Shown here: piece by piece, positions 30,852-34,339 of the stretch
Position numbering within the stretch: the stretch's first letter is position 1
Layout of the letters: every line of letters begins with the position of its first letter
DNA from: Mucilaginibacter psychrotolerans
GTDB lineage: Bacteria > Bacteroidota > Bacteroidia > Sphingobacteriales > Sphingobacteriaceae
NCBI RefSeq assembly: GCF_004519315.1
Contig: NZ_SOZE01000005.1
Span: forward strand, 173,190-237,189
Reading direction: 5' to 3'
DNA length: 64,000 nucleotides
Translations under genes and position numbers: made by a program
Notes under the pieces: generated by a model
Databases searched by the model: none
What the model was told of the DNA's origin: nothing
The model's input: the letters and a program-made list of their open reading frames with translations, nothing else

Positions 30852-31172
30852 TTATCTCAATTGCTTATCCAGCTTCTCGGCAAGCAGCCGTTTGGGCACG
30901 GCACCTATCTGCTTATCTACAATCTCGCCCCCCTTAAAAAATAGCAGTGCGGGTATATTGCGTATGCCGTAGCGCCTGACCGCTTCGGGATTGGTGTCTA
31001 CATCTATCTTACCCACTATGGCCTTACCTGCATATTCGCGGAATATCGCCTCCACAACCGGGCCTACCATATTGCTGGATCCGCACCAATCAGCCTCGAA
31101 ATCAACCAGTACCGGTTTATCAGCACTCAGTACCAGTTCGTTAAAGTTATCATCAGTAATAATAAGCGACAT
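30852..31172 (-). CDS. Thioredoxin-like protein with CGSS active site
   Basis: A 106-aa single-domain thioredoxin fold. The active site reads ADWCGSSNM instead of WCGPCK: Cys30 is kept and the resolving Cys is Ser33. The cis-Pro loop NIPALLFF (Pro74) is intact. It therefore cannot form the usual intramolecular disulfide; it may act as a monothiol, glutathionylation-type or chaperone-like thioredoxin. It is the last gene of a three-gene unit (dioxygenase, 32-aa membrane peptide, thioredoxin) preceded by a poly-Cys leader. Cys30 is the only Cys in the protein. Confidence 0.88.
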   Translation of the reverse strand: MSLIITDDNFNELVLSADKPVLVDFEADWCGSSNMVGPVVEAIFREYAGKAIVGKIDVDTNPEAVRRYGIRNIPALLFFKGGEIVDKQIGAVPKRLLAEKLDKQLR

Positions 31173-31280: not shown

Positions 31281-32087
31281 TTATTTTACTAAACCTGCAA
31301 ATTTCTGGTAAAAAGCGGTAGGGCTGTTCTCGTTCTTAGGCTGATATTTACCTGCAATAATAGGGATATAAATAACCCTGCGGCGGCTTGGCTCGCCAAC
31401 CACGGTAGATTGCGCTACGCGGTGCCAAAGGCGACCATCGTGTATGGTAAGGTCGCCTGCGGCGGGCGCTATGGCAATTTCGGCGGCATCGGCATCATTA
31501 TCCAGGAAGTATCGCTTTTTGAACAGCATACTGTAGATACCCTGCTTATGCGTACCGGGCAATATGCGCAGCCCGCCGTTATCGGCGTGCAGGTTATCCA
31601 GATGGATGCCCACATTGAGCATCGGGTTAAGTTTGCCGCCCAGGAAAATATCGCGCAGTCCATCGGTATGCCAGCCCATTTTGGTAAAGCCGCTCTCAGG
31701 ACCATTTACGTAGTGGTTAAATACCATACCGTCCTTTTCGTCCGTACCCAGCCTGGCACCGGGGCCTATGATATCCAGCAACACATCAAAACGCGGGTCC
31801 TGCGCAAACTCGCCCAGCAGGCTGTGGTGCTGGTTGACAAAGGCAAAGCGCTGCACTATCTTACTGCCGTTAAGATCTTTACCGTATTTTATGGGCACGC
31901 CGTTCACTTTCTCTGTATTGTTGCTGATCCACTTTTGCTGCACCTCTTCCGAGGCACGCAGTATATCGGCCACTGTTTCGGGCTTAATGAAATTACGAAA
32001 ATGGATAAACCCGTGCTCGTTAAAAAAGGCTTTTTGTTCCTGGGTAATCTGGCTGCCCAGCGTAAATTTTTGGTATATGGCCGACAT
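31281..32087 (-). CDS. Phytanoyl-CoA dioxygenase (PhyH) family protein
   Basis: A 268-aa Fe(II)/2-oxoglutarate-dependent oxygenase. The metal ligands are visible as His140-x-Asp142 in MGWHTDGL and His222 in DGRLWHRV, with the 2OG-binding Arg in PSRRRVIY. PhyH relatives hydroxylate many small substrates; some related 2OG enzymes (TauD type) release sulfite from sulfonates. The protein contains no Cys at all, and it lies behind a 27-codon leader ORF that ends in five Cys codons, so a role in sulfur limitation is a reasonable inference, not shown. Downstream are a membrane peptide and a thioredoxin. Confidence 0.85.
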   Translation of the reverse strand: MSAIYQKFTLGSQITQEQKAFFNEHGFIHFRNFIKPETVADILRASEEVQQKWISNNTEKVNGVPIKYGKDLNGSKIVQRFAFVNQHHSLLGEFAQDPRFDVLLDIIGPGARLGTDEKDGMVFNHYVNGPESGFTKMGWHTDGLRDIFLGGKLNPMLNVGIHLDNLHADNGGLRILPGTHKQGIYSMLFKKRYFLDNDADAAEIAIAPAAGDLTIHDGRLWHRVAQSTVVGEPSRRRVIYIPIIAGKYQPKNENSPTAFYQKFAGLVK

Positions 32088-32169
32088 GAAAAGAAATGTT
32101 AAAATTGATGGAATAGTATAGTTCTTTAAAAGAATCTATAACCTGCAGAACTAAATGGGCTGGCGGAAA

Positions 32170-32253
32170 TCAACAACAACAGCAACACATTGCCGCGGTT
32201 GGCAATTGCATTCGCATGGGGCATGCGATGATATTTTGGCTGTTGAAGGTCAT
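32170..32253 (-). CDS. Leader peptide ending in five Cys codons
   Basis: A 27-codon ORF 82 nt upstream of the dioxygenase ATG. It starts MTFNSQNIIACPMRMQ and ends LPTAAM followed by CCCCC and TGA, coded TGT TGC TGT TGT TGT. Just after the stop, TAGTTCT can pair with AGAACTA 20 nt further on, while the same AAAGAA can pair instead with a nearer TTCTTT, so two mutually exclusive hairpins are possible. The design is that of a leader whose translation reports charged tRNA-Cys supply. A second leader of the same kind lies at 33320-33394. Confidence 0.72.
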   Translation of the reverse strand: MTFNSQNIIACPMRMQLPTAAMCCCCC

Positions 32254-32260
32254 CTGTTTT

Positions 32261-32325
32261 ATAGACTATAATGTCTATGTATTTTATATACATTACAAAT
32301 ATAAGGAGTTAAACCAATCCTGCAA
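32261..32325 (-). promoter_or_regulatory. Promoter and ATAGAC operator of the PhyH unit
   Basis: Minus strand: TTG at 32325-32323, 19-nt spacer, TATATTTG at 32303-32296, then 17 nt, then the palindrome ATAGAC-ATTATA-GTCTAT (32278-32261). The -7 box and ATAGACATTATA recur with almost identical spacing before the second poly-Cys leader. Confidence 0.65.
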
Positions 32326-32344
32326 CAGTTTCTTAAAATAATTT

Positions 32345-33121
32345 TTACTTTTTGTATAAGCTCGCTGTAATACGCTCAACCAAGCTCTTATTCAAGTGCC
32401 TGGCAGCAATGGCCGATACCCTGTTCAGAAACCCCGGCACTATTTCTGCTTTTTTGCGGAACATGGCTTTTAATCCCACACGAGCAACCTCGGCGGGCGA
32501 CATATTGAATTTTTCGGCAAGTTCCTGTAGCGCATCCATGCCTGCGCGTTGGGCAAAGCCGGTTGCCGTTGGGCCGGGGCAAAGGCAGGTTACGCTTACT
32601 TTACCCTGTTTCTGCTCGTATCGTAAAGCGCGACTAAACGACAAAACGAAGGCTTTGCTTGCAGAATACAATGCCAGCGACGGCACAGCCTGGTAGGCCG
32701 CAACGCTGGATACATTGAGCACAAACGCCTTACTCTGCTTTTTTAACAAAGGCAACGTATAATAAGTAAGTTCTACCAGGGCACTGATATTCAGTTTAAG
32801 CATATTCATTTGAGCAGCTAAATCAAGCTCATCAAAATTGCCCCAGAGCCCATAGCCGGCATTGTTCACCAGGATACTCACCGGCACACCCAAAGTTTTG
32901 CACCAATCCGCAACGGCCAGTGCAGCGCCGTCTGCAGAAAGGTCGGCGCTGAGACATAGTGCCTTCACCTGATAATTTGTTGCCACCGTTTGGGCAAGCG
33001 CGTCCAAATCGCCTTTAGAACGGGCTACCAACAATAAATTATAGCCACGTTCGGCCAGTTGTAAAGCCAACTCTTTACCTATCCCCCGGCCCGCCCCGGT
33101 AATTAATGCGTACTCATTCAT
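32345..33121 (-). CDS. Short-chain dehydrogenase/reductase (SDR)
   Basis: A 258-aa classical SDR: NAD(P)-binding TGAGRGIG near the start, NNAGYG, catalytic Ser in NVSSVAAYQ and YSASK with catalytic Tyr/Lys. I start at ATG 33121 (MNEYALITGAGRGIGKELAL), since the longer frame to 33169 adds an unrelated N-terminus. Substrate unknown. It lies between the two poly-Cys-leader units but has a normal Cys content (four), so it is probably not part of the same response. Confidence 0.88.
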   Translation of the reverse strand: MNEYALITGAGRGIGKELALQLAERGYNLLLVARSKGDLDALAQTVATNYQVKALCLSADLSADGAALAVADWCKTLGVPVSILVNNAGYGLWGNFDELDLAAQMNMLKLNISALVELTYYTLPLLKKQSKAFVLNVSSVAAYQAVPSLALYSASKAFVLSFSRALRYEQKQGKVSVTCLCPGPTATGFAQRAGMDALQELAEKFNMSPAEVARVGLKAMFRKKAEIVPGFLNRVSAIAARHLNKSLVERITASLYKK

Positions 33122-33252
33122 TGTTAAGCCTCGTTTGTTGGCGTCAAAATAACGAAAACGGATCGGCAAGGTTTCAGTGTGGGCAGTATATTGTTTTGCA
33201 AGGATACCATTTGCCTCGTGTCATAACATCCGATCATTTTTTTAAAATAAAA

Positions 33253-33315
33253 TTTGCATGCAATTGGGTAATCTTCCTACTTTTGATAATATCTATTAAA
33301 TCTATAGACATTATA
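33253..33315 (+). promoter_or_regulatory. Promoter and ATAGAC operator of the H1/peroxiredoxin-like unit
   Basis: TTTG at 33253-33256, 21-nt spacer, TACTTTTG at 33278-33285, then 18 nt, then ATAGACATTATA at 33304-33315 within the perfect 8-bp palindrome TCTATAGA (33301-33308). Same layout as at 32261-32325 on the other strand. Confidence 0.65.
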
Positions 33316-33319
33316 TATA

Positions 33320-33394
33320 ATGAATAAGCAAATACATTCATCACACACTATGTACCGCTTCCCCAAAGGTGTACAGTATTGTTGTTGCTGTTAA
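33320..33394 (+). CDS. Leader peptide ending in four Cys codons
   Basis: A 24-codon ORF starting MNKQIHSSHTMYRFPKGVQ, then Y-C-C-C-C and TAA, coded TGT TGT TGC TGT. It begins 34 nt after the -7 box and ends 108 nt before the histone-H1-like gene. The gap holds a CGGCC...GGCCG hairpin (about 33408-33426) and a TGTTA...TAACA stem (about 33456-33482), and ends with TTTAAAGAACT, a motif also present in the gap after the other leader. Apart from the Cys run and position the two leader sequences are unrelated, as expected for leaders selected for the Cys run itself. Confidence 0.72.
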   Translation: MNKQIHSSHTMYRFPKGVQYCCCC

Positions 33395-33502
33395 ACTCTT
33401 CTCCTTTAACGGCCTAAAAGCGGCCGGAACATCATAAATAATTTCACAACTCTATCTGTTATACAGCTGATATACAGTAACAATTTAAAGAACTCAGCCC
33501 AA

Positions 33503-33688
33503 ATGAGCAAATACACCGATCTGAAAAACCTCATTGCTGCCATTGAGCCCGATGCAGAAAGGTTTTACAAAAAAGGCAACCATGCAGCGGGTACCCGTTT
33601 GCGCACCGGCTTGCAGCACGTAAAAGCATTGGCGCAGGTGATAAGGCTGGAAGTACAAACATTAAAAACCCAAACCGAAAAACAATAA
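33503..33688 (+). CDS. Histone H1-like (Hc1 family) small protein
   Basis: A 61-aa basic, helical protein: MSKYTDLKNLIAAIEPDAER, then FYKKGNHAAGTRLRTGLQ and VIRLEVQTLKTQ. This is the pattern of the small Bacteroidota histone-H1-like proteins that bind DNA. It has no Cys. It is the first gene after the poly-Cys leader and is followed 6 bp later by the peroxiredoxin-like gene, so the two are cotranscribed. It may be a chromatin-protecting factor in the same stress response. Confidence 0.75.
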   Translation: MSKYTDLKNLIAAIEPDAERFYKKGNHAAGTRLRTGLQHVKALAQVIRLEVQTLKTQTEKQ

Positions 33689-33694
33689 TACGCC

Positions 33695-34339
33695 ATGGCA
33701 TCAACCTACTACACCCAGCATAGCTTCGATTTTTTAGAAATTATTAGCGAACTCGAACTTCCATACAAAAAATATCAACCGCTAAAACCGTTGAAAACCG
33801 GCCAAAGCATACCCGGCTTTGCCCTTAAAAAAGAATTCAACAACTGGCGACAGTTTTTCAATGGCTCGCAGGTACATGGGCCTGTTGTATTGCGCCAGCT
33901 ACTCAACAAACCGCTGGTCATCAGCTTTTACTCGGCCCATTGGGGCGAAAGCGGCACCGTCCGTCTAAAGCAACTGAATGCCATACAGCACGAAATAAGG
34001 GCCGCAGGCGCAAACCTGCTGATTATTACGCCAGACGAGGACAGCAAAGCTTTCGAAAATATGATATGGGATAACAGCCTCTCGCTCAGTTTCTATTATG
34101 ATGAGGAAAACGTCATCGCACAAAAGCTGAAGCTGTTTTCAGAGGCATCACCGGTGTGGAACACCTATTCGGGCATTGATGTAAATGTGCCATTGCTGGC
34201 CACCTATGTACTGGATACCAACAACCAGATTTTGTACGATGAGGTGGACAATGAGTTGAACGGCACCATCCCTTCTCCCCAAATACTGGATGCACTGCAC
34301 AGCTCGTCGTTATATCAAACTACCCGCAAATCGGCATAA
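33695..34339 (+). CDS. Peroxiredoxin-like protein without catalytic cysteines
   Basis: A 214-aa thioredoxin-fold protein of the AhpC/TSA 'peroxiredoxin-like' group (G-Q-S-I-P-G-F at 36-42, VHGPVVLRQLLNKPLVISFY, then ANLLIITPDEDSKAFENM). In active relatives the strand is followed by WCPxC; here it reads FYSAHWGESG, so both Cys positions are Gly (Gly84, Gly87). The entire protein has no Cys. It therefore cannot work as a thiol peroxidase and may be a scaffold or sensor. It ends the H1-like unit; a strong terminator follows. Confidence 0.8.
   Translation: MASTYYTQHSFDFLEIISELELPYKKYQPLKPLKTGQSIPGFALKKEFNNWRQFFNGSQVHGPVVLRQLLNKPLVISFYSAHWGESGTVRLKQLNAIQHEIRAAGANLLIITPDEDSKAFENMIWDNSLSLSFYYDEENVIAQKLKLFSEASPVWNTYSGIDVNVPLLATYVLDTNNQILYDEVDNELNGTIPSPQILDALHSSSLYQTTRKSA

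What the first reader, a model, noticed from the sequence alone, without database searches (positions are those of the whole stretch)
32170..33394. Two leader ORFs ending in runs of Cys codons, one on each strand
Upstream of two neighbouring redox-type transcription units I find short ORFs of 27 and 24 codons that end in five and four consecutive Cys codons directly before the stop. Their other sequence is unrelated, so the Cys run and position are what is conserved. By chance, two such runs in short ORFs at equivalent positions within 1.2 kb are very unlikely. Leader ORFs with consecutive Cys codons are known in mycobacteria, where they report cysteine supply; I know of no described Bacteroidota case. 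The inferred function is Cys-dependent attenuation or translational coupling.
Basis: partly seen in the sequence, partly recalled or inferred. Interest (0 to 1): 0.95.

Follow-up and report, generated by a model that had tools for sequence, protein, structure and literature searches.

The report
Cysteine-run leader peptides in Bacteroidota
Two tiny genes ending in a row of cysteine codons belong to a conserved family that sits in front of sulfur-related and redox-related genes in bacteria that are likely Mucilaginibacter and in some of their relatives, where they are likely to act as gauges of cysteine supply, in the methionine operon directly behind a predicted RNA sensor of S-adenosylmethionine.

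Summary
Both Cys-run ORFs exist and belong to a leader family conserved in the genus, Mucilaginibacter by inference. In loci picked by the downstream protein, not by the leader, a Cys-tailed leader precedes metY in 30 of 30, the window's PhyH gene in 30 of 30 and its Cys-less AhpC-like gene in 22 of 30. Cys codons swap TGT/TGC while the residue is kept. The start shared by all PhyH leaders gives 15 codons here (MRMQLPTAAMCCCCC, 32217-32170), not 27. Before metY the first ATG, the leader's, lies 6-15 nt behind a SAM riboswitch in 40 of 44 aptamers, 16 of 20 outside the genus. PhyH and AhpC units share an operator-like site. RNA behind the leader stop is C-rich and G-poor; the window spacers hold no terminator-like site, and modelled ribosomes do not consistently change gene-start accessibility. 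I infer Cys-dependent stalling read out by Rho, TnaC-like. Cys-run leaders are known in Actinobacteria; ten paper searches showed none in Bacteroidota and no SAM riboswitch feeding one.

The parts
32170..32217 (-). Leader ORF 1, 15 codons, MRMQLPTAAMCCCCC* (start shared by all PhyH loci); longer in-frame reading 32253..32170 has 27 codons
   Evidence: MRM...Cys-tail leader in 30 of 30 PhyH loci
32173..32187 (-). run of five Cys codons directly before TGA
33320..33394 (+). Leader ORF 2, 24 codons, MNKQIHSSHTMYRFPKGVQYCCCC*
   Evidence: Cys-tailed ORF on the gene strand within 500 nt upstream in 22 of 30 AhpC-like loci
33380..33391 (+). run of four Cys codons directly before TAA
32272..32292 (-). 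operator-like inverted repeat TGTATATAAAATACATAGACA
   Evidence: function inferred
32296..32303 (-). Bacteroidota-type -7 box TATATTTG (motif recalled)
   Evidence: TAnnTTTG in 30 of 30 PhyH upstream regions
33290..33310 (+). operator-like inverted repeat TATCTATTAAATCTATAGACA
33278..33285 (+). -7 box TACTTTTG (motif recalled)
32140..32169 (-). stretch behind leader 1 stop, candidate Rho loading site
   Evidence: C count peaks right after the stop over 80 leader-like ORFs; function inferred
33395..33424 (+). stretch behind leader 2 stop: pyrimidine-rich start, then a GGCC hairpin
   Evidence: function inferred
31281..32087 (-). PhyH-family dioxygenase-like gene, 268 aa, no Cys; first gene behind leader 1
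30852..31172 (-). thioredoxin-family gene, motif WCGSS with a single Cys; next gene on the strand (co-transcription not shown)
33503..33688 (+). Hc1 histone-H1-like small protein, 61 aa, no Cys, first gene behind leader 2
33695..34339 (+). AhpC/TSA-family protein, 214 aa, no Cys
32345..33121 (-). short-chain dehydrogenase gene between the two leaders (not part of a leader unit as far as seen)

Best explanation
The two ORFs belong to a conserved set of short leader ORFs ending in Cys codons that stand before sulfur-related and redox-related genes across what is likely the genus Mucilaginibacter, and they likely gauge cysteine: a ribosome short of Cys-tRNA would stall on the run and is predicted to keep the operon switched on. 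Shown by calls: presence, conservation at orthologous genes, purifying selection on the Cys residues, shared operator-like site and -7 box, C-rich G-poor RNA behind the stop, no terminator-like site in the two window spacers, and in metY operons a SAM riboswitch match that ends 6-15 nt before the leader start. Inferred: (1) the ORFs are translated; (2) scarce Cys-tRNA stalls ribosomes at the very end of the leader; (3) the stalled ribosome masks the C-rich stretch from Rho, so that transcription goes on, whereas with enough Cys the ribosome leaves and Rho ends transcription, in the geometry of TnaC but triggered by lack rather than by plenty of the amino acid (my estimate for step 3 alone: 0.4); (4) before metY, bound SAM blocks initiation of the leader, so that metY-metX runs only when both SAM and Cys are low.
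For: Loci chosen by protein, not by leader: metY in the genus 30 of 30 (27, the other 3), with no other Cys-tailed ORF in the 27 loci scanned; PhyH 30 of 30, 25 of 30 at four or more Cys in the last ten (23, 2); AhpC-like 22 of 30, no other such ORF in 107 kb on both strands; metY in 36 named Bacteroidota loci 11, against 0 on the reverse strand and 0 in 40 resampled sets; other phyla 0 of 44. Selection: PhyH codons 11-15 pN 0.037, pS 0.439; metY last four codons pN 0.109, pS 1.091, uncorrected. Target genes: O-acetylhomoserine sulfhydrylase and MetX, TonB receptors and a sulfatase-modifying-factor-like protein, and in one genome a gene followed by an encapsulin shell and its cysteine desulfurase. 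C count 6.17 in +1..+20 against 3.85 in +61..+80, n = 80, p = 5e-11. A Rho gene is present. SAM aptamer to first ATG 6-15 nt in 40 of 44.
Against: No expression, ribosome-profiling or cysteine-response data. The metY leaders of the genus carry two hairpins after the stop (mean z -2.50 over 27, mononucleotide shuffles), which the Rho model does not need. Terminator-like sites lie within 110 nt of the stop in 7 of 80 leaders against 1 to 4 in five shuffles; two, L232 and L135, look strong, so some units may use an intrinsic terminator. Loci are related, so counts are not independent. C-rich, G-poor RNA may be partly a general feature of untranslated mRNA; the decline away from the stop is the only control. 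A ribosome stalled at the first Cys codon would barely cover the stretch. PhyH and AhpC-like proteins have no shown role in sulfur supply. 8 of 30 AhpC-like loci lack the leader at the threshold used, and 25 of 36 named Bacteroidota metY loci do too.
Confidence: 0.72

Rival explanations
1. Classical attenuation or start-site sequestration: the stalled ribosome changes RNA folding, either preventing an intrinsic terminator or freeing the start of the next gene, the latter as I recall it for mycobacterial polycysteine leaders.
For: Two hairpins follow the metY leaders in the genus, the second with quite different sequences but a kept stem by eye. Terminator-like sites in 7 of 80 post-leader stretches against 1 to 4 in five shuffles, strong in L232 and L135.
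Against: No terminator-like site in the two window spacers; they fold little better than shuffles (z -0.79 and -1.06). Opening energy of the gene start does not fall consistently with a ribosome at Cys or stop codons in 18 modelled leaders. Most metY hairpins have no clear U tract behind them (by eye).
Confidence: 0.25
2. The Cys/Met-rich peptide itself is the sensor, for example of copper or another thiophilic metal, or of thiol redox state, arresting the ribosome from the tunnel.
For: Tails are often Met-Cys mixtures such as CICMCCCC, MMCMCCCC or MCYCCC; AhpC and thioredoxin neighbours are redox-type.
Against: metY-metX and the SAM riboswitch point to sulfur amino acids; the run sits at the extreme C-terminus, inside the ribosome when the last codons are read (inference).
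Confidence: 0.1
3. The ORFs are not translated and the run is a nucleotide element or a chance repeat.
For: ATGCGAATG is invariant in the 21 aligned 15-codon PhyH leaders, including the third base of the Arg codon.
Against: TGT and TGC interchange while Cys is kept; over the 15 codons pN is 0.170 and pS 0.343, against 0.198 and 0.289, and 0.200 and 0.211, in the two other frames; the reversed pattern has 0 hits against 10 in the genome; the ORFs are tied to orthologous genes on the right strand.
Confidence: 0.05

Closest known systems
Polycysteine leader ORFs of mycobacteria (Canestrari et al. 2020; seen only as a reference-list entry, content recalled) and the Cys-run leader peptides predicted in Actinobacteria (PMC1262725; passages and section 6 read)
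   Same: Short ORF with a run of Cys codons near the stop, upstream of sulfur genes, no conserved terminator hairpins; Rho was suggested there too.
   Different: Different phylum and target genes; not leaderless as predicted here; placed behind a SAM riboswitch at metY; shared operator-like site; Met mixed into many tails.
TnaC leader of the E. coli tna operon (recalled; tna is named as comparison in PMC1262725)
   Same: Ribosome stop at the end of the leader would protect a Rho site next to the stop codon.
   Different: TnaC responds to free tryptophan through the nascent peptide; here the trigger would be lack of Cys-tRNA.
SAM riboswitch RF00162
   Same: Aptamer present before metY.
   Different: The first start codon behind it is that of a short, mostly Cys/Met-tailed leader ORF, not that of metY.
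Mycobacterial Mbox and B12 riboswitches that act on small upstream ORFs (PMC12810186 and PMC11260477; abstract and outline read)
   Same: Riboswitch controls or interacts with a short upstream ORF; the Mbox case adds Rho-dependent termination.
   Different: Those uORFs are not described, in what I read, as amino-acid sensors; here the uORF ends in Cys codons and could be a second input.
SAM-I / T-box(Met) tandems before metX/metY (PMC9481103; passages read)
   Same: Two inputs, SAM and amino-acid supply, before the same genes.
   Different: Second sensor is a tRNA-binding RNA there, a translated leader here.

Membership tests
Cys-run leader peptide (Actinobacteria type) | short ORF with a run of Cys codons at its end | tested here: met
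Cys-run leader peptide (Actinobacteria type) | upstream of sulfur-metabolism genes in orthologous positions | tested here: met
   met for metY-metX; for the two window units a sulfur function of the genes is not shown
Cys-run leader peptide (Actinobacteria type) | expression responds to cysteine through the Cys codons | not testable with these tools
   needs reporter assays
Mycobacterial leaderless polycysteine attenuator | mRNA starts at the leader ATG (leaderless) | tested here: not met
   from sequence only: 34 nt (plus) and 78 nt (minus, 15-codon start) lie between the -7 box and the leader ATG in the window; metY leaders lie behind an aptamer of about 110 nt. Transcript starts are not mapped
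Mycobacterial leaderless polycysteine attenuator | stalled ribosome frees a sequestered start of the next gene (recalled) | tested here: not met
   energy modelling of 18 leaders only
Classical trp-type attenuator | intrinsic terminator with competing antiterminator | tested here: inconclusive
   none in window spacers; terminator-like in 7 of 80 leaders against 1-4 in shuffles; two hairpins behind metY leaders
TnaC-type Rho attenuation | C-rich G-poor stretch directly behind the leader stop | tested here: met
TnaC-type Rho attenuation | Rho-dependent termination relieved by the stalled ribosome | not testable with these tools
   Rho gene present, no expression data
SAM riboswitch RF00162 (metY units only) | aptamer above the gathering score | tested here: met
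   no Rfam match in the window

The most novel reading that the evidence does not exclude
In Bacteroidota a SAM riboswitch gates translation of a Cys/Met-tailed leader ORF, making one two-input sensor in which a small-molecule RNA sensor decides whether a ribosome-based amino-acid sensor may work at all; metY-metX would run only when SAM and charged Cys-tRNA are both low. In Mucilaginibacter the leader half has spread, joined to a palindromic operator, over a whole sulfur-starvation regulon including TonB receptors, a Cys-free AhpC-like protein and a cysteine-desulfurase encapsulin.
Probability: 0.45. Interest if true: 0.9.

Novelty: new variant of a known kind. Interest (0 to 1): 0.8.

Why it matters
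A Cys-leader regulon in Bacteroidota, which mostly start translation without Shine-Dalgarno pairing (recalled), would give a sulfur-starvation signal that can be read from sequence alone. It would predict sulfur-related roles for genes without one, such as the Cys-free AhpC-like and PhyH-like proteins here. The arrangement of SAM riboswitch, leader ORF and metY gives a directly testable two-input gate, and suggests that in many Bacteroidota the immediate target of this riboswitch is a short ORF rather than metY itself.

Tried and rejected
Gene-start sequestration: modelled for 18 leaders, no consistent effect. Intrinsic terminators: none in the window spacers; in 7 of 80 post-leader stretches against 4, 1, 3, 3, 3 in five shuffles. 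Operator searches of the whole genome: a 15-mer with two mismatches gave 30 hits against 114 for the reversed control, useless; a 21-mer with three mismatches gave 6 against 4, only the window's plus-strand site being close; a hit at window 1826 I take as chance. AhpC-like protein alone in genome contigs found nothing. RNAalifold on the post-leader region found only the outer stem of the first hairpin, so covariation is described by eye and not scored. Sulfur sparing (no Cys in PhyH, AhpC-like, Hc1) is suggestive only: 7 of 38 window ORFs of 150 aa or more also lack Cys. The first script for AhpC-like loci failed to find the gene in 8 of 30 and was replaced by whole-locus scans.

Full report
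OBSERVATION. Both ORFs are as described. TGYx4+stop has two matches in the window against 0.01 expected; the genome has 10 TGYx4-TRA sites against 0 for the reversed pattern. Four of the ten end an ATG ORF followed by a gene: the two here, L004 before metY and L005 before a TonB receptor; the other six have no in-frame ATG. A looser scan, TGYx3-TAA, gave 31 sites (reversed control 7), 30 of them fetched, and added no further convincing leader.

CONSERVATION. Sites found by the Cys pattern are biased (22 of 60 fetched same-genus sites are free-standing ATG leaders), so I tested loci picked by protein. (a) AhpC-like: in 80 of 120 genus genomes; 22 of the 30 loci fetched have, on the gene strand within 500 nt upstream, an ATG ORF of 10-60 codons with at least four Cys in the last ten; none elsewhere in 107 kb on both strands. 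One of the 22 (L231) may be the wrong ORF, since a second, three-Cys candidate precedes it. (b) PhyH: in 42 of 120 genomes; a leader starting MRM with at least three Cys in its last six residues is in 30 of 30 loci, and 25 of 30 pass the stricter threshold (23 of 28 located, both of the others). Ten other Cys-tailed ORFs lie in the 28 loci outside the tested place: one is the window's own plus leader, and six of the seven that I examined belong to a second leader unit (below). (c) metY in the genus: in 91 of 100 genomes; 27 of 27 starts located by the script have the leader, with no other Cys-tailed ORF in those loci, and the three loci whose start the script missed have it too: 30 of 30. (d) metY in 80 named loci of many phyla: 11 of the 36 that I put in Bacteroidota by record title, 0 on the reverse strand, 0 in 40 first-order Markov resamplings; other phyla 0 of 44; four or more Met in 3 of 36 against 0 resampled. 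Over all 80 loci there were 11 hits in the tested place and 2 elsewhere in 479 kb. The loci are related, so these counts show tight association and not independent events. Cys codons change by synonymous codons: PhyH codons 11-15 pN 0.037 and pS 0.439, whole leader 0.170 and 0.343, other frames 0.198/0.289 and 0.200/0.211; metY last four codons 0.109 and 1.091, uncorrected.

START OF LEADER 1. MRM is the one start present in all 30 PhyH loci. In the window and in L260, L265 and L267 an in-frame ATG lies 12 codons earlier; in the other 24 of the 28 listed it does not. I take 15 codons as the core leader and leave the longer start open.

WHERE IT IS. A same-genus genome (G043, locus L288) encodes the same 36-residue metY leader as Mucilaginibacter oryzae (L100), so I take the genus to be Mucilaginibacter in the sense of that collection.

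GENES BEHIND CYS LEADERS. metY-metX, PhyH and AhpC-like, TonB receptors, a fatty-acid-hydroxylase-like protein (leader 509-544 nt away) followed in L071 by a sulfatase-modifying-factor-like protein, and in L090 a beta-carbonic-anhydrase-like protein behind AhpC. In six PhyH loci (L243, L244, L249, L251, L258, L269) a second, divergent Cys leader lies about 1 kb from the PhyH leader, behind an inverted repeat of the same kind; the divergent pair recalls this window. All six were fetched further. In five (L300-L303, L305) the gene behind it is a protein of 384-398 aa, and in L304 a similar one (417 aa by the first start) that is followed by a type 2A encapsulin shell gene and its cysteine desulfurase cargo. 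L300's protein matched no Pfam or NCBIfam family, L304's only a sub-threshold Pfam hit. That such encapsulins respond to sulfur starvation in cyanobacteria is recalled. An operator-like site [TA]CTA-N5-9-TAGA is in 27 of 30 PhyH and 19 of 30 AhpC-set upstream stretches (mononucleotide-shuffle means 2.26 and 2.12) and TAnnTTTG in 30 and 25 (means 2.71 and 3.59); the AhpC set contains a few spurious Cys ORFs, so 19 is a low figure. The regulator is unknown.

SAM RIBOSWITCH. RF00162 lies before the leader in L004, in 16 of 20 named loci chosen because they showed Cys/Met-type ORFs, in 7 of 19 further named loci, and in 5 of 5 and 20 of 20 genus metY loci tested. In 44 of these aptamers (the five left out, seen) the first ATG lies 6-15 nt behind the aptamer in 40: 24 of 24 in the genus and 16 of 20 outside. 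Exceptions are L118 (+63), L115 (+3), L127 (+18) and L148 (+109), where it is metY itself. Four named loci without a Cys run (L108, L112, L116, L121) still have an ORF of 33-46 codons there. The window itself has no Rfam match.

MECHANISM. Behind the stop the RNA is C-rich and G-poor: C count 6.17 in +1..+20 against 3.85 in +61..+80 over 80 leader-like ORFs, related and a few of them doubtful, p = 5e-11. No terminator-like site lies in either window spacer and their folds are near ordinary (z -0.79, -1.06). Over the 80, 7 have a terminator-like site within 110 nt against 1 to 4 in five shuffles; L232 and L135 look strong, so intrinsic termination may serve some units. Modelled ribosomes at Cys or stop codons do not consistently alter gene-start accessibility. 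A Rho gene is present. The Cys codons stand directly before the stop in most leaders, so a stalled ribosome would sit beside the C-rich stretch. I therefore prefer a TnaC-like Rho readout, already suggested for actinobacterial Cys leaders, where Rho-site motifs were not conserved (PMC1262725). Against it, the metY leaders of the genus have two hairpins that the model leaves unexplained, and a ribosome stalled on the first Cys codon covers little of the stretch.

LITERATURE. Ten searches led to: Cys leaders in Actinobacteria (passages, section 6); a remark on leader-peptide attenuation before amino-acid operons in Flavobacterium psychrophilum (PMC9723704, passages) and on possible leader ORFs in Bacteroides (PMC7366714, passages); leader-gene spacing statistics that include Bacteroidetes (PMC4833913, passages); SAM-I in Bacteroidetes without mention of leader ORFs in the passages seen (PMC2258182); riboswitch-uORF pairs in mycobacteria (abstract and outline). 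I found no Cys leader in Bacteroidota and no SAM riboswitch feeding one; the library lacks most subscription journals.

Noticed in passing
L304:3-3969 (-): A type 2A encapsulin shell gene and its cysteine desulfurase cargo gene follow a gene with a Cys leader, in one same-genus genome.
   Followed up: partly
window 32217-32209 and the 21 aligned 15-codon PhyH leaders: The start ATGCGAATG (MRM) is invariant down to the third base of the Arg codon; GCGAATG also recurs, by eye, in metY leaders of other families (L107, L109, L110, L135). No explanation.
   Followed up: partly
window 33695-34339: AhpC/TSA-family protein without a single Cys; relatives in 80 of 120 genus genomes. This copy cannot be a thiol peroxidase of the usual kind.
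   Followed up: no
window 30852-31172: Thioredoxin-family protein with WCGSS in place of WCGPC, the second Cys absent.
   Followed up: no
L270-L298, first 75 nt behind the metY leader stop: Two consecutive hairpins, the first with an ACACGT/ACGTG base, the second with very different sequences but a kept stem by eye; mean z -2.50.
   Followed up: partly
L140 and L120 metY upstream: Met-Cys-rich ORFs (FMCMCMC; MMQMCMMMCCC) in a Gemmatimonadetes and a Kapaibacterium record, below the threshold used.
   Followed up: no
L301:2479 and L303:2652 (+): A further ORF pair ending LFCCYCHC, about 500-600 nt before a gene whose relative in L302 has a sub-threshold redoxin match.
   Followed up: no
L232, about 30-60 nt behind a Cys-rich ORF: Strong intrinsic-terminator-like hairpin with T run between a Cys-rich ORF and the AhpC-like gene.
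   Followed up: no
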